Assembly: GCA_024281175.1 (NCBI GenBank) | Contig: JAMJTW010000026.1 | Location: 1-35,098 of the forward strand | Length of the DNA stretch: 35,098 nt | Direction: 5' to 3' | From: Candidatus Thiovulum imperiosus | GTDB taxonomy: Bacteria; Campylobacterota; Campylobacteria; Campylobacterales; Thiovulaceae | Shown here: positions 27,611 to 35,098 of the stretch, one piece after another | Position numbering within the stretch: the first letter of the stretch is position 1 | How the letters are laid out: each line of letters starts with the position of its first letter | The notes under the pieces: generated by a model | Seen by the model: the letters and a program-made list of their open reading frames with translations, nothing else | Database searches by the model: none | What the model was told of the DNA's origin: nothing | Made by a program: the position numbers and the translations under genes

Positions 27611-27645
27611 GATTTCTCAATCGCCATGCTCATTTCGAAATGACA
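27611..27645 (-). repeat. Half-copy of the GTCATTTCGA palindromic repeat
   Basis: The plus strand begins GATTTCTCAATCGCCATGCT and continues to TTTCGAAATGACA. It matches one arm of the fuller elements at 29220-29294 and 31831-31929. It lies just after the guaA stop. Confidence 0.75.
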
Positions 27646-27750: not shown

Positions 27751-27857
27751 TTTTTGTAAAATTTCAAAAAAGGATTTTTATGGAGAGTGTAGAGAAAGAA
27801 GAGAATTTAGTAAAAAAGACTTGTCGAGAATTGGGAATTACACAAAAAGAGTTAGCG
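27751..27857 (+). repeat. HTH-cassette conserved leader, copy 1
   Basis: The run TTTTTGTAAAATTTC plus AAAAAAGGA, and then the codons for ENLVKKTCRELGITQKELA, are shared almost base for base with copies at 32777-32864 and 33932-34026. This copy has four extra codons after the ATG. Confidence 0.88.
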
Positions 27858-28010
27858 GAAATATTTCATGTTACACCTCACACAGTTACAAATTGGGTTC
27901 GAGGAAGAATGGAAGAAGTTCATAAAAGAGCTTTAAAAGGTTTAATTTATGAACATCGATTTCAAGAAATAAAATATAAACTACATGATGTAAGTTTAGA
28001 TAAACTATAA
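27780..28010 (+). CDS. Small HTH regulator, cassette family member 1
   Basis: A 76-residue protein starting MESVEKEENLVKKTCREL at the ATG 27780, with an AAAAAAGGA site 6-14 bases upstream. A longer frame from 27708 is open but starts inside the lipoprotein relic and lacks a ribosome site. A single XRE-like helix-turn-helix spans about residues 18-45: the first helix GITQKELAEIF is shared with the other family members, and the presumed recognition helix TPHTVTNWVRGR is unique to this copy. The C-terminal helix (ALKGLIYEHRFQEIKYKLHDVSLDKL) may dimerise. The stop lies 3 bases before a TTGACA promoter driving the Bro-N/nuclease gene, so this protein is the obvious candidate regulator of that promoter. 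Confidence 0.8.
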   Translation: MESVEKEENLVKKTCRELGITQKELAEIFHVTPHTVTNWVRGRMEEVHKRALKGLIYEHRFQEIKYKLHDVSLDKL

Positions 28011-28013
28011 TCC

Positions 28014-28043
28014 TTGACAATGTAACTATATTTACAATAAAAT
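28014..28043 (+). promoter_or_regulatory. Promoter and putative operator of the Bro-N/nuclease gene
   Basis: TTGACA (28014-28019), 18-bp spacer, TAAAAT (28038-28043). The spacer carries the inverted repeat TGTAA-CTATAT-TTACA (28021-28036), an operator-like site exactly where a repressor would block RNA polymerase. A second inverted repeat TTGTTGG...CCAACAA (28048-28080) could fold in the leader RNA. Confidence 0.55.
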
Positions 28044-28060
28044 ATTGTTGTTGGAAAAGA

Positions 28061-28102
28061 ATGGCACTCTTAACCAACAAAATTCAATTAAGGCTTACTT
28101 AA
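28061..28102 (+). other. Possible 13-codon leader ORF
   Basis: ATG at 28061 with GGAAAAG just upstream encodes MALLTNKIQLRLT and ends in TAATG, the last two letters overlapping the start of the nuclease gene. It would translationally couple that gene. It could be chance at this length. Confidence 0.25.
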
Positions 28103-28944
28103 TGAAGCACAAAATTATATCAAACTCCTTACAGTATGCTACTTTTAACTTTAATTCTTTAGAAATTAGAATAGTTATTATTAATGGTCAAGAATATTTC
28201 GTTGCTAAAGATGTAGCAGAATTACTAAGTTATAAAAGACCTGCTGATGCAGTTGCCCAACATTGTAAAAAAGCAATTGATTTTGAGGTCAGTAAATTAA
28301 ATTGCACAAATAATTTTAGCTCTAAAGCTAGAGTAATAAAACTCATTCCAGAGTCTGATGTTTTAAGACTAATTCATAAAAGTCAAAAAATTACAGAACA
28401 AGAAAAGAAACATATTGTCAGCTTTTTTGATTTTACAAAAACAGAAATATTTATCTCAAGACAAGAAACAGAGTTTGGAAAAGAGTTGAAAAATTTCATA
28501 AAAACTATTTACAATTTAGAAGTAGAAACTCAATATCCTGTAAAAAATTACAGATTGGACTTTTATATTCCAGAACTCAACTTGGCTATTGAATTTGACG
28601 AAAAACATCATAAATATCAAAAAGAAAAAGACGAAAAAAGAGAAAATGAAATTAAAGATATTTTAAATTGTAAATTTGCTAGAGTCTTTGAAGAGCAATC
28701 TATTGGAGAACAATTAGGTTTTGTTATAAAAGCAATAAATGAAGAACCTAAAAAAGAGATTTCTCTTTCAAAACGACAAAAACAGATTTTAGAATATTTA
28801 CAAAATCACAAGCTTTCAACAAAAGAGTTGTCTAAAAAACTTGGTTTTTCAAAATCAACAATTTTGAAAGATTTAAAATTTCTTATTGAAAATGAACAAA
28901 TAGAAAAAATCAAAAGCGGAAGAAATGTTTTCTATAAAGCCTAA
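28102..28944 (+). CDS. Bro-N + PD-(D/E)XK-like nuclease + winged-HTH protein
   Basis: A 280-residue three-domain protein. The Bro-N DNA-binding domain spans about residues 14-105 (FNSLEIRIVIINGQEYFVAKDVAELLSY). A restriction-endonuclease-fold domain of the DUF559/Vsr-like type spans about 120-215, with acidic core RLDFYIPELNLAIEFDEKHH and EKRENEIKDIL. The winged HTH spans about 222-280 (LSKRQKQILEYL, LSTKELSKKLGFSKSTILKDL). I start it at ATG 28102, with TAAGG 9-13 bases before. The in-frame TTG at 28045 overlaps the promoter and would precede or abut the transcription start. The winged HTH is nearly the same as that of the broken gene at 13540, whose nuclease domain is of another fold. The HTH1 gene lies upstream. 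A phage-type regulator, nuclease effector or defence gene are all possible. Confidence 0.78.
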   Translation: MKHKIISNSLQYATFNFNSLEIRIVIINGQEYFVAKDVAELLSYKRPADAVAQHCKKAIDFEVSKLNCTNNFSSKARVIKLIPESDVLRLIHKSQKITEQEKKHIVSFFDFTKTEIFISRQETEFGKELKNFIKTIYNLEVETQYPVKNYRLDFYIPELNLAIEFDEKHHKYQKEKDEKRENEIKDILNCKFARVFEEQSIGEQLGFVIKAINEEPKKEISLSKRQKQILEYLQNHKLSTKELSKKLGFSKSTILKDLKFLIENEQIEKIKSGRNVFYKA

Positions 28945-29144
28945 ACTTCCTCCCAACAGAACTTGGAAAGTTACACGGAATTTCTGGAAGAGAAACAAAT
29001 TTGAAACTCAAGGCTTTAGGCTTTCAAGTTTCTGAAAACTCCATTTGGAAACTTACAGAAAAAGGAAAAGAGTTTGGAATGGAATACCGTGGAAAGTTTT
29101 CCCAACTCAAATGGAAACTTTATACACCAATATATATAGACTAA
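28938..29144 (+). pseudogene. C-terminal relic of an antirepressor-like gene
   Basis: A 68-codon open frame without a start, beginning inside the end of the nuclease gene. It reads LNFLPTELGKLHGISGRETN, then LKLKALGFQVSENSIWKLTE, then KGKEFGMEYRGKFSQLKWKL and YTPIYID. The arrangement TELG...LN/LK-LKxLGFQ...WxLTEKGKEF is the C-terminal domain of phage antirepressors and parallels KLNLILEEKGFQTRNEKVWE in the genes at 33134 and 34306. The 5' part is missing, so the Bro-N/nuclease gene probably replaced it. Confidence 0.6.
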
Positions 29145-29150
29145 ATAAAC

Positions 29151-29180
29151 TTGACATGAGCTGACTAAACTTTGTAGAAT
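29151..29180 (+). promoter_or_regulatory. Promoter upstream of clpB
   Basis: TTGACA (29151-29156), 18-bp spacer, TAGAAT (29175-29180). It would give clpB a leader of about 135 bases containing the palindromic repeat. No clear CIRCE or HAIR element was seen. Confidence 0.5.
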
Positions 29181-29219
29181 TTCTCAAAAAAAAGGAGAGG
29201 GGAGTTTGACAAAATAGTT

Positions 29220-29294
29220 TGTCATTTCGATATGAGCATGGCGATTGAGAAATCTTAAAAAAGTATTTCTCACCCGAAAGGGTTCGAAATGACA
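29220..29294 (+). repeat. Full palindromic repeat (GTCATTTCGA family) in the clpB leader
   Basis: Outer arms TGTCATTTCGA / TCGAAATGACA and inner arms TGAGAAAT / ATTTCTCA are interrupted on one side by a CCC-GAAA-GGG side hairpin. It would form a branched RNA or cruciform. It ends 28 bases before the clpB ATG. Confidence 0.8.
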
Positions 29295-29322
29295 AGTTTG
29301 GTCGTTCCCAAGGAGAAAAGAT

Positions 29323-31803
29323 ATGTTTGAAAAACTTACAGCATCTTTACAAGGAAATTTAGAAAAGGGAGTCTCTCTTGCACTTAGCAAGGGAAATGGA
29401 GAGGTAGAGCCTCTTCACATTTTTTGGAATTTGGTTTTGGAAACCTCATCGCCATTGAGAGAAGTTTTAAATCGGTTGGGGGAAGAGCCGAGGGGATATG
29501 AGTTACGAATTCAGAGCGAAATCGAAAAGTTTCCAAAAAGTTCAGGAGTTTCAAAAGAGAGTATAAGACTCTCTCGAAAAGGTATGGAGTCTCTTCAAAA
29601 AGCAGAAGCGGTAGCAACTCAAAAAGGAGACTCTTTCATTGCAACAGACTCTTGGATAGAAGCGAATATAGAAAACTATAAAAGTATCTTTCCAAACTAC
29701 AAAGAAATCCTAAAAGAGCTTCTGAAAGCTAGAGGGGAAAAGCGAATTGAGTCAGCAACTGGCGATGAGGTTCTTGAGGCTCTCAAAAAGTATTCTCGAA
29801 ATTTAAATCTTGCTTCAAAAGAGGGAAAACTTGACCCTGTAATTGGTCGAGATGAGGAAATCGAAAGAGCGATACAGATACTCATTCGGAAAACTAAAAA
29901 CAACCCTATTCTTTTAGGCGAACCAGGGGTTGGGAAAACTGCTCTTATCGAGGGTCTAGCTTCCCGTATCGTATCTGGAGATGTTCCAAATTCTTTGAAA
30001 TCGAAAACAATTCATCTCTTAGATATGACAGCACTTATTGCTGGAGCAAAATATCGAGGTGAGTTTGAAGACCGACTTCAAGCGGTTGTCAATGAGGTGA
30101 AATCTGCGGGAAATGTCATTCTTTTCATCGATGAAATTCACACAATTGTTGGAGCTGGAAACAGTGAGGGAAGTATGGACGCAGCAAATATTTTGAAACC
30201 TGCTCTTGCAAGAGGTGAATTGCGAACCATCGGGGCTACAACTCTAAAAGAGTATCGAAAATATTTTGAAAAGGATACTGCACTCCAGAGACGCTTTCAA
30301 CCTATTACTTTAAGCGAACCTACTATTTCTCAAGCTCTCCAAATCATGAGAGGAATTAAAGAACGACTTGAAACTCACCACAATATTTCGATTTCTGACT
30401 CTGCTCTGGTAAGTGCTGTAAAACTTAGCGACCGATACATTTCAGACCGTTTTCTTCCAGATAAGGCGATAGACCTCATCGACGAGGCTTCCGCAGAACT
30501 CAGAATGCAAATTGAGAGCGAACCATTTCCACTTTCACAAGTGAAAAGACTTATTTCGAGTTTGCATGTTGAGAGAGAAGCTCTAAAAATGGAGGGAGTT
30601 GAAAAGGGTAGATTGGAGGAACTTGCTGAAGAACTCAAATTTGCTGAAAAGCGAAAAGCAGATTTAGAAGAGAAGTTTGCCACGGAAAAGAGAATCTTTT
30701 CACAAATTTCAGATACAAAAGTTGAAATCGAAAAGAAGAAAATCGAAATGGGAAAACTGGAAAGTGAAAGCAAATATGGAGAAGTTGCAAAGATACGATA
30801 TGAAACAATACCCCAACTTGAAAGTAGAGTTTTGGAACTTGAAAAGGTTCAGAAAGAGGGAACTCTACTAAAAAACCGAGTCGATGAAGAGAGTATCGCA
30901 AAAGTGATAAGTCGCTGGACTGGAATTCCAATCTCCAAAATGTTACAGAGTGAAAAAGAGAGAATTTTAGAAATTGAAAAGCATCTAAATTCTGAAGTGA
31001 TTTCTCAAGAGGTAGCAGTAAAATCTGTTGCAAGAGCAATAAAGAGAAACAAAGCTGGACTCTCTGAAGAGAACCGACCAATTGGCAGTTTCCTCTTTTT
31101 AGGTTCAACTGGAGTTGGAAAAACTGAAACAGCAAAAGCACTTGCGAGATTCCTTTTTGACTCTGAAAGTGCAATGGTTCGATTTGATATGAGTGAATAT
31201 ATGGAGAAACATTCGGTTTCAAAACTTATCGGGGCTTCAGCAGGATATATTGGATATGAAGAGGGCGGACAACTTACAGAAGCTGTTCGGCGAAAACCCT
31301 ACTCTGTTCTACTTTTTGATGAAATTGAGAAAGCTCATCATGACATTTGGAATTTGCTACTTCAAGTTTTAGATGATGGCAGACTTACCGACAATAAGGG
31401 CGTTACCGTAGATTTCCGAAATACAATTGTGATTCTAACTTCAAATTTGCAAAAAGAGAATCTCAAGAACTATTTTCGTCCTGAATTTCTAAATCGGCTT
31501 GATGAAGTTGTGGAGTTCCAAACTCTTGGAGAAGAAGCGATTTTAAGAATCCTCGACATATTTTTAGGAAAAGTGGAAAAGAAACTTTCGGAAAGGAACT
31601 TGAAACTGGAAGTCTCTTCAGAAGCGAAAAGATATATAGCTTCTGTTGGTTTCGATGAGGTTTTTGGAGCAAGACCACTCAAAAGAGCAGTTTCAGAAGA
31701 GATAGAAGATAGAATTGCTGATGCGATTTTGGAAAGTAGAGTTTCTGATGGAGATACTCTAAAGTTTGGTTTCCAGAATGGAGAAATCTTTCTGGAAATT
31801 TAG
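29323..31803 (+). CDS. clpB: ClpB disaggregase
   Basis: An 826-residue Hsp100 AAA+ protein that pulls proteins out of aggregates with DnaK. Clp N-domain repeats occupy about 1-140. AAA-1 has Walker [18 protein letters not shown] (near 200) and [13 protein letters not shown] coiled-coil middle domain (about 395-500; [15 protein letters not shown]) distinguishes ClpB from ClpA/C. AAA-2 has Walker [16 protein letters not shown] (near 595), the LFDEIEKAH Walker B and the [12 protein letters not shown] sensor region. Some 30 residues fewer than E. coli ClpB (857). AAGGAG lies 12-17 bases before the ATG. Flanked on both sides by the palindromic repeat family, between two accessory islands. Confidence 0.96.
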
Positions 31804-31830
31804 AATTGCAAAATAGGCTTTTACCTCTCT

Positions 31831-31929
31831 TGTCATTTCGAACCCTTTTGGGTGAGAAATCCTTGTATTGAACAAAGTGAAATATCTTTTTCAAGATTTC
31901 TCAACCGCTACGCTCATATCGAAATGACG
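31831..31929 (-). repeat. Full palindromic repeat between clpB and the lipoprotein gene
   Basis: Outer arms GTCATTTCGA / TCGAAATGAC and inner arms TGAGAAATC / GATTTCTCA, with a CCC-TTTT-GGG side hairpin. It is in reverse orientation to the copy at 29220-29294 and has a longer central loop. It lies between convergent genes, so it may serve as a terminator. Confidence 0.8.
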
Positions 31930-31938
31930 GAGAAGAAA

Positions 31939-32751
31939 CTAGTCTAAGTTTCGGACGCATAGAGTATGATATTTCTCACTGTTACTTGAATTGCCACTTC
32001 CATAACTAGCACCAATAAGATATGAAGATGTGCTAGTCCAATATAAATTTTGCAAATTTCTAAATCTATTTCTATTTTGAAAAATTTTCAACTCTTCATG
32101 ATTTGGAAGTTTCCAATCCGTAAATCCATGTAGATTTTCGCAATATCTATTTGCATCTTTCCAAGTCATCGCATTTTGCAGGTGTTTTAGAAACATCAAA
32201 TTCCCAATGATTACAATTTCAAAAGGAATTTCAAATTTTGACGAGTATTTTTCTGCACTTGCTCCAACTATCCAAAGTTCTCCATTTCTCTCTTCAAATT
32301 TCATATCAAATTGCTTCACACTACCTTTAAAACTTTCGGCTTTAGCAATAGGAACAGCAATCTGAAAAGGAATACTATTTACCGTAACATCAAAAACCTC
32401 ATCATCAGGGCGATACTTCATCGAAATGCTTTGTCTTCCAAGCCAAGAGTTTAAAATCTCACCTTTCTCATTTTCAATTGCTTTCTGATTTCTAGCTTTA
32501 CACTCCTCTTTCTTTTTTCTAAAAGTCTCTTTTCTCTTTTGATAGGCTTCACTCTTTTCAAACTCTCCTTGAGAAGAGATACTACTTGGACAACTCTCTT
32601 GAGAAATCTTCGGTCTCACTATCTGGACTGCTTCGCCAAAACTCGTTGCATTCGCTACTTCTGGATACTTTGGAGAATTTCCCGTCCAAACTAAACCTTT
32701 ACTTGAACAACCTGCAAAAAGCAGGAAAACTAAAATTGCAAAATATCTCAC
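31939..32751 (-). CDS. DUF1566 (Lcl-type) lipoprotein
   Basis: A 270-residue lipoprotein starting at GTG with a strong GGAG site. The signal MRYFAILVFLLFAGCSS has lipidated Cys15. The middle third is charged and helical (KSEAYQKRKETFRKKKEECKARNQKA). The C-terminal ~85 residues form a DUF1566 domain: FLKHLQNAMTWKDANRYCEN, GFTDWKLPNHEELK, NLYWTSTSS, then the closing VRNLD. DUF1566 has a C-type-lectin-like fold seen in surface adhesins such as Legionella Lcl; the ligand is unknown. It is divergent from the HTH gene at 32799, with only 47 bases between starts. Its leader and first codons resemble the relics at 26008 and 27677. Confidence 0.8.
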   Translation of the reverse strand: MRYFAILVFLLFAGCSSKGLVWTGNSPKYPEVANATSFGEAVQIVRPKISQESCPSSISSQGEFEKSEAYQKRKETFRKKKEECKARNQKAIENEKGEILNSWLGRQSISMKYRPDDEVFDVTVNSIPFQIAVPIAKAESFKGSVKQFDMKFEERNGELWIVGASAEKYSSKFEIPFEIVIIGNLMFLKHLQNAMTWKDANRYCENLHGFTDWKLPNHEELKIFQNRNRFRNLQNLYWTSTSSYLIGASYGSGNSSNSEKYHTLCVRNLD

Positions 32752-32764
32752 GACACTCCTTTTT

Positions 32765-32770
32765 TATAAT
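32765..32770 (+). promoter_or_regulatory. -10 box for HTH cassette 2
   Basis: TATAAT 29 bases before the ATG at 32799. The 47-base divergent gap must also contain the lipoprotein promoter or its leader, so the two genes are probably co-regulated. Confidence 0.45.
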
Positions 32771-32776
32771 TCTAAT

Positions 32777-32864
32777 AAAATTTCAAAAAAGGAAAATTAT
32801 GGAAGAAGAGAATTTAGTAAAAAAGACTTGTCGAGAATTGGGAATTACTCAAAAAGAGTTGGCT
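32777..32864 (+). repeat. HTH-cassette conserved leader, copy 2
   Basis: AAAATTTCAAAAAAGGAAAA and the first ~22 codons are nearly identical to copy 3 (33932-34026). Upstream of the AAAATTTC the sequence differs (CTAAT in place of TTTGT), because here the lipoprotein gene precedes the cassette. Confidence 0.88.
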
Positions 32865-33035
32865 GAAAAAACTTCAATATCTTTACCAACAATCAATAGA
32901 TGGAGTTCTACCAATAAAATACCTAAACAGAATGTTATGTTTTTAAATCTTCTTCTTGAAAATAATCAATTACAAAATCAACTTTCTGAATTTCAAAACT
33001 TTTTTCATAAATTTAATAAACTCTCTTCAATATAA
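32799..33035 (+). CDS. Small HTH regulator, cassette family member 2
   Basis: A 78-residue protein from ATG 32799 with an AAAAAAGGA site. Residues 1-22 are the same as in member 3 (MEEENLVKKTCRELGITQKE...). The helix-turn-helix continues with a private recognition helix (SISLPTINRWSSTNK) and a leucine/asparagine-rich C-terminal helix (NLLLENNQLQNQLSEFQNFFHKF), a likely coiled coil for dimerisation. A longer in-frame start at 32586 would lie inside the opposite lipoprotein gene and is rejected. A hairpin sits on its stop codon. A strong promoter with an AT-rich palindrome follows and drives the antirepressor-like gene at 33134. Confidence 0.82.
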   Translation: MEEENLVKKTCRELGITQKELAEKTSISLPTINRWSSTNKIPKQNVMFLNLLLENNQLQNQLSEFQNFFHKFNKLSSI

Positions 33036-33061
33036 AGGGGGTGTCATTTTGACGACCCCTT
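33035..33061 (+). terminator. Hairpin after HTH cassette 2
   Basis: Stem AAGGGGGTGTCA / TGACGACCCCTT with one mismatch and a TTT loop, immediately at the stop codon. It separates the regulator transcript from its partner gene. Confidence 0.55.
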
Positions 33062-33108
33062 AAAATAATAATTATTTTTTGACAAAACAATTATTTTAAT
33101 AGTATTAT
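33062..33108 (+). promoter_or_regulatory. Promoter and putative operator of antirepressor gene 1
   Basis: TTGACA (33079-33084), 18-bp spacer, TATTAT (33103-33108). The palindrome AAAATAAT-A-ATTATTTT (33062-33078) abuts the -35 box. The leader is about 20 bases, with GGA at 33125 as ribosome site. Confidence 0.6.
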
Positions 33109-33133
33109 TCTCAGTAAATTTATTGGAATAACA

Positions 33134-33940
33134 ATGTTAGTGAAATTTGAGAATATCAATATAGAAGTTGAAAGAAATTCAAAGCATGAGTTTTTAATTT
33201 CAAATAGCGAAGTCGCGAAAGGTTATGGAGTTCAAGAAAAATCTTTATTGCGAACTAAAACTAGACATGAAGATGAACTGATAGAGAGAAAACATTTCAT
33301 CTTTTTAGAAGTTCAAACAAAAGGTGGAAAACAGAAAAAGATTTTCTGGACAAAACGGGGAGTAATTCGGCTTGGGTTTTTTATAAAATCTGAAAGAGCC
33401 AAGAAGTTTCGAGATTGGGCAGAAGATTTAATACTTTCGGAAATTGAAGCAGTTCCAAGTTTGCAGAAGCTAGAAGAGAGAGCAAAACTTTTGGAAATTT
33501 CGGAAAAGGAGTTTTATATCTTTGAGAGAGTCTTTTTCAAGTTGGGCATTACTAGACCTGAAGAACTTGCAATTACAACAAATAGAGCAGTGAAAAAAGA
33601 GACTGGAGTCGATTTCCTCAAAATTTCCGAAAAGAAAGGAATTTCCACACTTGAAAACTATATCACTGTAACAGAACTTTGTGAAATTATCCGAAAAGGA
33701 GAATACTCCGATGAGGTGAAATCCTCTGTTTCTACAAAAGACCTGTCCAAACCGAACCCTCGCAAACTAAATTTGATTTTAGAAGAGAAAGGCTTCCAAA
33801 CCCGAAATGAGAAGGTTTGGGAAGCTACTGAGAAAGGGAAAAAGTTTTCAAATTTCGTTCAAAACAAATCTAAAACTTCTGAAAAAACTATTTATCACCT
33901 AACTTGGAAAAAGGAAGTTTTGGAAGAACTCTTTTTGTAA
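33134..33940 (+). CDS. Phage antirepressor-like protein 1
   Basis: A 268-residue protein. The N-terminal part (1-100) resembles phage antirepressor/Bro-type DNA-binding domains: SEVAKGYGVQEKSLLRTKTRHEDELIERKHFIF, then the very conserved KIFWTKRGVIRLGFFIKSERAKKFRDWAEDLI. A linker helix (KLEERAKLLEISEKEFYIF) and a central segment follow. The C-terminal antirepressor domain (about 175-268) has NYITVTELCEIIRKG, PNPRKLNLILEEKGFQTRNE, VWEATEKGKKF and YHLTWKKEVLEEL. No nuclease motif is seen. It has its own promoter and follows HTH member 2. The paralogue at 34306 is near-identical outside residues ~12-50. A regulatory role opposing a repressor is inferred from family resemblance. Confidence 0.72.
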   Translation: MLVKFENINIEVERNSKHEFLISNSEVAKGYGVQEKSLLRTKTRHEDELIERKHFIFLEVQTKGGKQKKIFWTKRGVIRLGFFIKSERAKKFRDWAEDLILSEIEAVPSLQKLEERAKLLEISEKEFYIFERVFFKLGITRPEELAITTNRAVKKETGVDFLKISEKKGISTLENYITVTELCEIIRKGEYSDEVKSSVSTKDLSKPNPRKLNLILEEKGFQTRNEKVWEATEKGKKFSNFVQNKSKTSEKTIYHLTWKKEVLEELFL

Positions 33941-34026
33941 AATTTCAAAAAAGGAAAAATATGGAAGAAGAGAATTTAGTAAAAAAGACTTGTCGAGAAT
34001 TGGGAATTACTCAAAAAGAGTTAGCT
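33932..34026 (+). repeat. HTH-cassette conserved leader, copy 3
   Basis: It begins in the last codons of the antirepressor gene at 33134 (TTT TTG TAA). The same TTTTTGTAAAATTTC string opens copy 1 at 27751, where no such gene precedes it. Confidence 0.88.
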
Positions 34027-34215
34027 AGACAAATGGGAGTTAGCGACTCAACAGTTAGACACTGGAACTCCAATAATGAATTTCCAAACATAGCAAAGAA
34101 TTTTATGAAATTAATTTTAGAAAATAGAGAGTTAAAAAATAGATTTCAAAAAGTAGAAAACTTCCTACTTTTAATAGATGAAGTAAAGGGTGTTCAAAAA
34201 ATGAACACCCTTTGA
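33961..34215 (+). CDS. Small HTH regulator, cassette family member 3
   Basis: An 84-residue protein starting 20 bases after the antirepressor stop, with AAAAAAGGA as ribosome site. The N-terminus matches members 1 and 2. Its private recognition helix is GVSDSTVRHWNSNNE, and the C-terminal helix is MKLILENRELKNRFQKVENFLLLIDEV, coiled-coil-like. The last codons and stop form the right arm of a perfect 12-bp hairpin. A TTGACT promoter and an antirepressor paralogue follow, repeating the arrangement of the previous module. Confidence 0.82.
   Translation: MEEENLVKKTCRELGITQKELARQMGVSDSTVRHWNSNNEFPNIAKNFMKLILENRELKNRFQKVENFLLLIDEVKGVQKMNTL
34185..34213 (+). terminator. Hairpin over the end of HTH cassette 3
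   Basis: Perfect 12-bp stem AAAGGGTGTTCA / TGAACACCCTTT with a five-A loop, overlapping the stop codon. No T-run follows beyond TTT. Confidence 0.65.
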
Positions 34216-34222
34216 AACATGC

Positions 34223-34288
34223 AAATAAAACACATTTATTTAAAATAATATGCTGTATTTGACTTTATGCCTAAAACTAAGATAAACT
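34223..34288 (+). promoter_or_regulatory. Promoter and putative operator of antirepressor gene 2
   Basis: TTGACT (34259-34264), 18-bp spacer, TAAACT (34283-34288). The inverted repeat AAATAAA-ACACA-TTTATTT (34223-34241) lies 17 bases upstream of the -35 box. It differs from the palindromes of modules 1 and 2. Confidence 0.5.
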
Positions 34289-34305
34289 AAAAGAAAAGTG
34301 TCAAC

Positions 34306-35098
34306 ATGCTTGTAAAATTTGAGAATATAGATATTGAAGTTGAGGAAAATCAAAAATATGAGTTTTTAATTTCTAATAGTGAAGTTGCAAAAGGTTATGG
34401 TATTTCAGAAATTACTTTACGGCGACATAGAAGTAATAATGAAAATGAACTGATAGAGAAAAAACATTTCATCTTTTTAGAAGTTCAAACAAAAGGTGGG
34501 AAACAGAAAAAGATTTTCTGGACAAAACGGGGAGTAATTCGACTTGGATTTTTTATAAAATCTGAAAGAGCCAAAAAGTTTCGAGATTGGGCAGAAGATT
34601 TGATACTTTCAGAAGTTGAGGCAGTTCTAAGTTTGCAAAAGCTAGAAGAGAGAGCAAAACTTTTGGAAATTTCGGAAAAAGAGTTTCATATCTTCCAAAG
34701 AGTGTTTCGAGAACTCGGTATTACTAGACCTGAAGAGTTAGCAATTACAACAAATCGAGCAGTGAAAAAAGAGACTGGAGTCGATTTCCTCAAGATTTCC
34801 GAAAAGAAAGGAGTTTCTACACTCGAAAACTATATCACTGTAACAGAGCTTTGTGAAATTGTCCGAAAAGGAGATTTTCCAGAAGAAACAAAACTTTCTG
34901 TTTCTACAAAAAATGACAAGCCAAATCCTCGAAAACTAAACCTCATCTTAGAAGAAAATGGTTTTCAAACCCGAAATGAGAAGGTTTGGGAAGCCACAGA
35001 AAAAGGGAAACCTTTTGCAGATTTCGTTCAAAACAAATCTAAAACTTCTGAAAAAACTATTTATCACCTAACTTGGAAAAAGGAAGTTTTGGAAGAAC
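34306..35098 (+). CDS. Phage antirepressor-like protein 2, 3'-truncated by window edge
   Basis: A frame of 264 codons open to the last base. It starts MLVKFENIDIEVEENQKYEF with an AGAAAAG site about 10 bases upstream. It is the close paralogue of the gene at 33134. From KKHFIFLEVQTKGGKQKKIF onward the two proteins differ only at scattered positions, whereas the HTH-like stretch (GYGISEITLRRHRSNNENEL versus GYGVQEKSLLRTKTRHEDEL) is largely different. The visible sequence ends at WKKEVLEE, four residues short of the paralogue's end, so only the stop is missing. By analogy another HTH leader may follow outside the window. Confidence 0.75.
   Translation, partial: MLVKFENIDIEVEENQKYEFLISNSEVAKGYGISEITLRRHRSNNENELIEKKHFIFLEVQTKGGKQKKIFWTKRGVIRLGFFIKSERAKKFRDWAEDLILSEVEAVLSLQKLEERAKLLEISEKEFHIFQRVFRELGITRPEELAITTNRAVKKETGVDFLKISEKKGVSTLENYITVTELCEIVRKGDFPEETKLSVSTKNDKPNPRKLNLILEENGFQTRNEKVWEATEKGKPFADFVQNKSKTSEKTIYHLTWKKEVLEE

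What the first reader, a model, noticed from the sequence alone, without database searches (positions are those of the whole stretch)
27751..34288. Cassette family of small HTH genes with constant leader/N-terminus and switched recognition helices
Seen: three genes (27780, 32799, 33961) share an almost identical ribosome-site region (AAAATTTCAAAAAAGGA) and ~20 codons encoding ENLVKKTCRELGITQKELA, then lose similarity abruptly where the second HTH helix begins (TPHTVTNW, SLPTINRW, SDSTVRHW). The high DNA identity, including the untranslated part, points to recent copying or gene conversion of the 5' block. Known: in XRE-type HTH proteins the third helix reads DNA. Inference: regulator specificity is being diversified by recombination through a constant 5' block, giving a set of orthogonal regulators with shared expression signals.
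Basis: partly seen in the sequence, partly recalled or inferred. Interest (0 to 1): 0.82.

Follow-up and report, generated by a model that had tools for sequence, protein, structure and literature searches.

The report
Shuffled phage-switch cassettes in Thiovulum kin
A sulfur bacterium related to Thiovulum carries about two dozen copies of a small phage-type repressor/anti-repressor gene pair; the outer parts of the pairs are kept alike within each genome, while the central parts that should set specificity are old, shared between species and found at different chromosomal places.

Summary
The host is a Thiovulum-like Campylobacterota bacterium. Its genome encodes this N-terminal core at 24 places, 21 of them identical over 17 residues. 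A congeneric genome and Ca. Thiovulum stygium have 33 and 34 profile matches. In the window each HTH gene precedes an antirepressor-type gene.

The pair is a mosaic: constant left border (leader, helix 1, most of helix 2), variable centre (recognition helix, C-terminal helix, intergenic DNA, partner N-domain), constant right border (partner C-terminus). Borders evolve in concert: the nearest relative is in the same genome for 58 of 63 leaders and 54 of 63 C-termini, but 17 of 63 tails (about 20.6 expected). Tails show pN<pS in 26 of 26 cross-species pairs, and 0 of these 26 share a host flank gene in the stretches fetched. So old specificities appear to be reassorted between recombining borders, not newly diversified.

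Phages of Campylobacterota carry related pairs. Function (autoregulated phage-derived switch, perhaps a superinfection-immunity repertoire) is inferred, not shown; operators were not established. New variant of a known kind.

The parts
27752..27857 (+). Module 1 constant left border: leader (TGTAAAAT, AAAAAAGGA), start codon and N-terminal codons through KELA
   Evidence: near-identity to a paralog extends 55 nt left of the core and 4 nt right; core 27807-27857
27780..28010 (+). Module 1 HTH gene, tail class VTPHTVTNW
   Evidence: HTH_3 24.7 bits, cutoff 23; phrog_4779 4.3e-10
27876..27905 (+). Module 1 recognition helix codons
   Evidence: by alignment to helix 29-38 of the model of the 33961 protein; inference for this gene
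28011..28101 (+). Module 1 intergenic stretch with TTGACA and TAAAAT boxes and an imperfect palindrome; presumed operator and promoter
   Evidence: sequence and inverted repeats; operator not established
28102..28944 (+). Module 1 partner: Bro-N domain, DUF559-like middle, winged HTH (a different C-terminal type from modules 2 and 3)
   Evidence: PF02498 2.4e-12, PF04480 4.1e-06, PF08279 1.7e-08
32776..32864 (+). Module 2 constant left border
   Evidence: near-identity 38 nt left, 4 nt right of core 32814-32864; another paralog (C14_136798) shares 593 nt to the left
32799..33035 (+). Module 2 HTH gene, tail class SLPTINRW
   Evidence: HTH_3 26.1 bits; phrog_4779 7.8e-15
32883..32912 (+). Module 2 recognition helix codons
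   Evidence: by alignment to the model; inference for this gene
33036..33133 (+). Module 2 intergenic stretch, presumed operator and promoter
   Evidence: operator not established
33134..33940 (+). Module 2 partner, Bro-N-like antirepressor
   Evidence: PF02498 3.8e-05, 24.6 bits, just under the cutoff 25.6; phrog_63 anti-repressor 2.7e-09
33653..33937 (+). Constant right border as analysed: last 95 codons of the module 2 partner
   Evidence: segment B: same-genome nearest relative in 54 of 63 (DNA 55 of 63)
33932..34026 (+). Module 3 constant left border; overlaps the stop codon (33938-33940) of the module 2 partner
   Evidence: near-identity 44 nt left, 0 nt right of core 33976-34026; sequence
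33961..34215 (+). Module 3 HTH gene, tail class VSDSTVRHW
   Evidence: HTH_3 27.1 bits; phrog_4779 8.5e-16
34045..34074 (+). Module 3 recognition helix codons (residues 29-38)
   Evidence: AlphaFold2 model, mean pLDDT 87.1
34216..34305 (+). Module 3 intergenic stretch, presumed operator and promoter
   Evidence: operator not established
34306..35098 (+). Module 3 partner, Bro-N antirepressor, continues beyond the window
   Evidence: PF02498 4.3e-07, 30.9 bits; 86% identical to the module 2 partner

Best explanation
A chromosomal, multi-copy family of phage-type repressor/antirepressor gene pairs in Thiovulum-like bacteria. Shown by sequence: constant borders (left: leader to HTH helix 2; right: antirepressor C-terminal part), homogenised within each genome, around a variable centre (recognition helix, HTH C-terminal helix, intergenic DNA, antirepressor N-domain); the centres are shared between species, with tails under purifying selection, and were not found at shared chromosomal sites. 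Inferred evolution: homologous recombination (gene conversion between copies, unequal crossing-over in tandem arrays, perhaps uptake of outside DNA) in the conserved coding borders swaps or copies what lies beyond a centre; the sharp edge is where shared homology ends. Inferred function: each HTH protein represses its partner's promoter through a site in the gap, and the partner relieves repression, giving a set of autoregulated switches derived from temperate phages; the likeliest use is regulation of, or immunity to, phages with the same classes.
For: Nearest relative in the same genome: leader 58, C-term 54, tail 17, recognition part 12, HTH C-term 13, intergenic 14, partner N-term 25 of 63, about 20.6 expected. 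Tree label changes: leader 6, C-term 11, tail 32; 300 shuffles each average 29.3-30.0. Codon-usage null 35.1 +- 4.5 against 72.0 of 78. Leader and C-term vary together within genomes (r=0.33), leader and tail do not (-0.05), tail and intergenic do (0.32). Two snapshots of exchange in a complete chromosome. Tail pN<pS in 26 of 26 pairs. 0 of 26 pairs share a flank. Same two-gene order in the three phage records opened.
Against: No operator motif was established, so repression of the partner is inference. Tail and partner N-domain are only loosely linked (r=0.22), and an inverted repeat in some gaps follows the partner class, not the HTH class. Intergenic and C-term also correlate weakly within genomes (r=0.12, p=0.001), as do partner N- and C-terms between genomes (0.10, p=0.001), so centre and border are not fully independent. 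Background synteny was not measured, so lost neighbours may partly reflect rearrangement. Of nine loci outside Thiovulum read, four show an antirepressor-like gene next to the HTH (by eye or annotation) and five do not.
Confidence: 0.72

Rival explanations
1. Remnants of many prophages whose regulatory pair outlived the rest and was later homogenised as repeated sequence; no present function.
For: Campylobacterota phages carry the pair. 18 of 81 modules failed the filter for a complete partner at normal distance, some because of contig ends; the partner frame of module 289009 is interrupted.
Against: Purifying selection on tails in 26 of 26 cross-species pairs; 30-34 profile matches in each of three genomes against at most 5 in any other of the 298 genomes scanned.
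Confidence: 0.15
2. Purifying selection alone: the N-terminal residues, start region and partner C-terminus are constrained, so they look constant without any copying.
For: Phages NrS-1 and NrS-4 keep nearly the same residues; third codon positions in the core are less alike (0.72) than first and second (0.95, 0.97).
Against: Synonymous and untranslated letters cluster by genome: 72.0 of 78 against a codon-usage null of 35.1; partner C-terminal proteins cluster by genome as well (54 of 63); copied blocks reach up to 614 nt upstream.
Confidence: 0.04
3. Recombinase-driven cassette exchange at a fixed site near the KELA codons, as in invertible specificity systems.
For: The right edge is sharp (median 4 nt).
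Against: In one snapshot identity begins inside the coding core rather than at a fixed edge, and right extensions range from 0 to 22 nt. No recombinase search was made.
Confidence: 0.05
4. Toxin-antitoxin-like pairs spreading as addiction genes, the HTH being the antitoxin.
For: Two-gene TA-like layout; pneumococcal Ant and Bro inhibit growth when overexpressed (PMC4257102).
Against: In the same study the adjacent Xre proteins did not neutralise them and the authors ruled them out as typical TAs. Partners here carry DNA-binding antirepressor domains.
Confidence: 0.08

Closest known systems
Phage Xre-Bro/Ant repressor-antirepressor pair (Makarova et al. 2009, PMC2701414, passages; Chan et al. 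2014, PMC4257102, abstract and passages)
   Same: An HTH gene beside a protein with Bro-N, KilA-N or similar N-domain; same domains by Pfam.
   Different: Described there as present in many phages but not in bacterial genomes, and in single pairs; here about 25-34 copies per chromosome with homogenised borders.
Cro-like protein and neighbour of Nitratiruptor phage NrS-1, and relatives in NrS-4 and a Campylobacter jejuni phage
   Same: Same N-terminal block and gene order; the NrS-1 tail falls in the class of G000_C14_136798.
   Different: Phage-borne; NrS records have up to two matching places each.
Gifsy immunity regions and antirepressors (Lemire et al. 2011, PMC3121763, passages)
   Same: Repressor variants, homogenisation of two immunity regions by recombination or conversion, antirepressors acting in trans, also on non-cognate repressors.
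   Different: Whole prophages; [quoted passage not shown]
Domain shuffling among BRO/KilA-N proteins (Iyer et al. 2002; recalled, and cited inside PMC4257102)
   Same: Different N-domains on shared C-terminal types.
   Different: Here shuffling couples to an adjacent HTH gene and to within-genome homogenisation.

Membership tests
Cro/C1-type HTH (Pfam HTH_3) | Profile match above the curated cutoff | tested here: met
   24.7, 26.1 and 27.1 bits against 23 for the three window genes
Phage repressor-antirepressor pair | HTH gene followed by a gene with an antirepressor N-domain | tested here: met
   Window partners: Bro-N above cutoff in 2 of 3 and 1 bit below it in the third; KilA-N, pRha and Bro-N in three other module partners
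Phage repressor-antirepressor pair | Lies in a phage or prophage | tested here: inconclusive
   Window neighbours are guaA, clpB and ilvD-like genes by sequence; no systematic prophage search was made
Phage repressor-antirepressor pair | HTH represses and partner relieves repression | not testable with these tools
   needs binding or reporter assays; operator motif search inconclusive
Concertedly evolving gene family | Copies more alike within than between genomes | tested here: met
   Met for leader (58 of 63) and partner C-term (54 of 63); not met for the centre (tail 17 of 63)
Type II toxin-antitoxin | Toxic partner neutralised by the HTH protein | not testable with these tools
   Failed for related pneumococcal pairs in print
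Recombinase-driven specificity switch (hsdS-type; recalled) | Dedicated recombinase and fixed sites | not tested
   Only indirect: one junction lies inside the coding core

The most novel reading that the evidence does not exclude
Thiovulum-like bacteria keep a standing, recombining repertoire of phage-repressor specificities. Constant borders act as homology arms, so that specificity parts (repressor reading head, gap with its operator, antirepressor head) can move between chromosomal slots, strains and phages, giving superinfection immunity by repressor library alongside CRISPR and other defence loci.
Probability: 0.22. Interest if true: 0.88.

Novelty: new variant of a known kind. Interest (0 to 1): 0.66.

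Why it matters
The repressor-antirepressor pair has been described as a phage feature not found in bacterial genomes (PMC2701414, passage). Here three related genomes each keep about 25-34 of them, with borders that evolve in concert and conserved centres that do not stay at one place. It offers a natural set of regulators on one scaffold with many recognition helices, a clear case of recombination reassorting regulatory specificity, and a testable idea of immunity by repressor library.

Tried and rejected
Operator motifs: palindromes common to a recognition class and rare elsewhere were sought in 87 intergenic stretches (79 modules, 8 phage or relative loci); the AT-rich background gave no convincing motif. 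A TTCATTWATGAA-like palindrome in NrS-1 and two modules of one class was seen by eye only and is not claimed.

CRISPR spacers: 55 distinct T. stygium spacers against all loci held gave, below E 0.01, only hits in array sequence.

Structures: the antirepressor model was poor beyond residue 103 (mean pLDDT 60.8). Foldseek gave no PDB match at E<=0.001 for either model. Sequence search of solved structures gave weak HTH matches, best 2.1e-4 to a designed DNA-binding protein. Only the helix positions of the HTH model are used.

Recent duplication with fast tail divergence: rejected, because tails have counterparts in other species with pN<pS.

Prior description: searches of the held open-access library listed no paper that I recognised as describing this family (titles and abstract starts seen). 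In the T. stygium paper (PMC9938260) 'repressor', 'duplicat', 'regulator', 'caspase' and 'transposase' have no occurrence and 'phage' two, in the main text (find). Subscription papers were not searchable.

Rows dropped: 3 of 81 modules before (one near-identical C25 copy, one diverged core, one short tail); 18 of 81 before and the trees of 77 (incomplete partner or gap over 180 nt, among them those 3). The parser missed some copies, for example the two of snapshot 2, so 29 modules stand for the 34 matches in T. stygium.
Full report
WHAT IS THERE. They are small Cro/C1-type HTH proteins (HTH_3, 24.7-27.1 bits, cutoff 23) and match phage family phrog_4779 (4.3e-10 to 8.5e-16). Each is followed by a protein of the phage antirepressor kind: Bro-N at 28102-28944 (2.4e-12), at 33134-33940 (3.8e-05, one bit under the cutoff) and at 34306-35098 (4.3e-07).

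HOST. The closest named hits are Ca. Thiovulum stygium. A genome with the same match coordinates (G044) is coded same family but other genus than the window's genome; G001 is coded same genus. I therefore write Thiovulum-like; the name rests on these hits, not on a marker-gene tree.

HOW MANY. In the own genome (G000, 2.2 Mb, 36 contigs) the leader window has 29 matches, some partial. The core LVKKTCRELGITQKELA is encoded at 24 places with at most 6 mismatches, 21 exact. A profile finds 30 matches in G000, 33 in G001 and 34 in the complete T. stygium chromosome. Among 298 genomes of the order, 62 have any match; outside these three the largest count is 5 (at most 19 candidates per genome were scored). 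In T. stygium some modules stand in tandem about 1.2 kb apart (433.6-437.2 kb and 919.2-922.8 kb).

ANATOMY. Three module partners tested carry unrelated N-domains: KilA-N 7.1e-24, pRha 4.6e-14, Bro-N 1.5e-26; two stand-alone relatives carry AntA (6.9e-24, 2e-19). Many share C-terminal types; the module 1 partner has another one (DUF559 and winged HTH). In module 3 the stop codon of the preceding antirepressor lies inside the constant leader (TAA 33938-33940). The HTH model has helices 6-14, 18-25, 29-38 and 43-83 (pLDDT 87.1). The constant part ends at residue 22, within helix 2; the variable part holds recognition helix 3 and the long C-terminal helix.

THE KEY TEST. I compared modules of the three genomes segment by segment: 81 parsed, 78 usable for the HTH gene, 63 with a complete partner. 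For leaders (24 nt upstream plus the 51-nt core) the nearest relative is in the same genome in 71.6 of 78 (permuted 25.7 +- 5.0, max 44.2 of 2000); for tails in 16 of 78 (25.5 +- 5.2). With 63 modules it is leader 58, antirepressor C-term 54 (DNA 55), tail 17, recognition part 12, HTH C-term 13, intergenic 14, antirepressor N-term 25, against about 20.6. Trees agree: 6 genome-label changes on the leader tree (300 shuffles: mean 29.3, min 23), 11 on the C-term tree (29.9, min 24), 32 on the tail tree (30.0, range 23-35). Codon usage does not explain it: simulated synonymous cores give 35.1 +- 4.5 (max 48.2 of 300) where 72.0 of 78 is observed.

LINKS BETWEEN SEGMENTS. Within genomes, leader and antirepressor C-term vary together (r=0.33, p=0.001); leader and tail (-0.05) and tail and C-term (0.00) do not. 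Tail and intergenic (0.32, p=0.003) and tail and antirepressor N-term (0.22, p=0.001) do. Against a perfectly clean split: intergenic and C-term correlate weakly within genomes (0.12, p=0.001), and antirepressor N- and C-term between genomes (0.10, p=0.001). So there are two borders and a centre that is only loosely held together.

EDGES AND SNAPSHOTS. Between best leader partners in one genome, near-identity extends a median of 47.5 nt to the left (up to 614 nt) but 4 nt to the right of the core. Two comparisons in the complete chromosome show exchange. Modules 957621 and 898412 are 77-100% identical per 30-nt window, mostly 93% or more, through about 540 nt of upstream DNA, leader, HTH, gap and the first 90 nt or so of the antirepressor; alignment then fails for about 235 nt of the Bro-N core and returns at 83-100%. 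Tandem modules 287823 and 289009 have an HTH body identical over 240 nt but different leaders, identity beginning inside the core, and different antirepressor N-parts (the frame of the second antirepressor is interrupted). Exchange thus occurs at more than one seam.

OLD CENTRES, LOOSE SITES. There are 33 reciprocal best tail pairs between species above a normalised score of 0.4 and 26 at 0.5 or more. In those 26, pN averages 0.23 and pS 0.56, with pN<pS in each. None of the 26 shares a host flank gene within 6 kb in the stretches fetched. Five host flank genes are shared between genomes, and the modules near them have unrelated tails (best similarity 0.24-0.35). Stretches were short, some end at contig ends, and background synteny was not measured, so rearrangement may contribute.

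PHAGE CONNECTION. A tblastn of the 33961 protein finds 41 phage records at E<=1e-3: 25 Vibrio (the listed ones with short matches), 5 Nitratiruptor, 2 Campylobacter and 9 labelled 'Bacteriophage sp.', the listed ones from Helicobacter. In the three records opened (NrS-1, NrS-4, a C. jejuni phage) an antirepressor-like or so annotated gene follows. Of six further loci read (three IMG/VR contigs, three bacterial), one shows such a gene by eye and five do not. NrS-1 and NrS-4 keep ENIVKKVCKELGITQKELA, so the residues are under purifying selection beyond this group. Peculiar here are copy number and within-genome homogenisation of the DNA.

MECHANISM. Shown: homogenised borders, old centres, exchanged parts. 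Inferred: homologous recombination between borders; repression of the partner promoter by the HTH protein; relief by the partner. The intergenic stretch follows the HTH tail class, but no operator motif was established. An inverted repeat (CAAGTAGAAAY...TTTCTATTTG) in five partner leaders spans several HTH classes and seems to follow the partner type. Superinfection immunity or a set of host switches remain open.

AGAINST THE KNOWN. Makarova et al. 2009 describe the phage pair as present in many phages but not in bacterial genomes, and TA-like (PMC2701414, passages). Chan et al. 2014 found two pneumococcal prophage pairs not to be typical TAs although Ant and Bro inhibit growth (PMC4257102, abstract and passages). 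Lemire et al. 2011 describe antirepressors acting on non-cognate repressors and homogenised Gifsy immunity regions (PMC3121763, passages). The gene pair is known; a chromosomal repertoire with concerted borders was not met in the searches listed under Tried and rejected.

On re-reading the calls I softened the host name to Thiovulum-like, moved AntA from module partners to stand-alone relatives, limited the phage gene-order statement to the records opened, corrected the operator-search count to 87 stretches, and added the weak correlations that run against a clean split.

VERDICT. Observation confirmed and extended; interpretation partly supported (constant block and copying yes, ongoing diversification no). 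New variant of a known kind.

Noticed in passing
T. stygium chromosome (L187, L188, L190; about 901.2-902.3, 909.5-911.8 and 960.1-961.7 kb): Three CRISPR arrays (16, 32 and 23 repeat copies listed) lie directly beside modules 900923, 912025 and 959905, which share one leader type (MGRKKT...LENSK). None of 55 spacers matched a module among the loci held.
   Followed up: partly
G000 C10:57-70 kb (L092): Modules 57091, 62088 and 69787 are interleaved with defence genes: HEC-02A (4.3e-130), HEC-02B (3.4e-18), DRT2 reverse transcriptase (5.1e-152) and a type IIG restriction-methylation enzyme (2e-47); 4 of 9 proteins tested hit PADLOC strongly, 5 had none.
   Followed up: partly
G000 C9:67726-67932, C30:42628-42831, C30:43735-43932: A second, smaller HTH set shares MEEKFDLKSELKSIGMTQKEFAE and then differs at the recognition helix (NQNTVSRW, KSVYTITRW, HVNSVGKW), also beside antirepressor-like genes: the same design with another constant block.
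   Followed up: no
window 27613-27644, 29221-29252, 31897-31928: A 32-nt dispersed repeat (TTTCTCAATCGCNATGCTCATNTCGAAATGAC) occurs three times in the window on both strands, 0.00 expected; one copy lies about 110 nt upstream of module 1's leader. Genome-wide count not obtained (one search failed).
   Followed up: partly
window 31939-32751 (-): Lcl_C-domain gene (8e-10) with 11 similar ORFs in the fetched stretches; near-identity of module 2 with C14_136798 runs 593 nt upstream into this region.
   Followed up: no
G000_C10_100134, G000_C31_3237, G001_C17_70, G001_C42_15539, G001_C6_31221 gaps: An inverted repeat CAAGTAGAAAY...TTTCTATTTG in the partner's 5' leader, under different HTH classes but before pRha-like partners by eye: RNA hairpin or binding site of the partner.
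   Followed up: partly
window end, G000 C26:35100-35650: The module 3 partner frame runs into a run of N, after which another 87%-identical antirepressor C-terminus follows (C26:35192-35644): perhaps a collapsed tandem repeat in the assembly.
   Followed up: no
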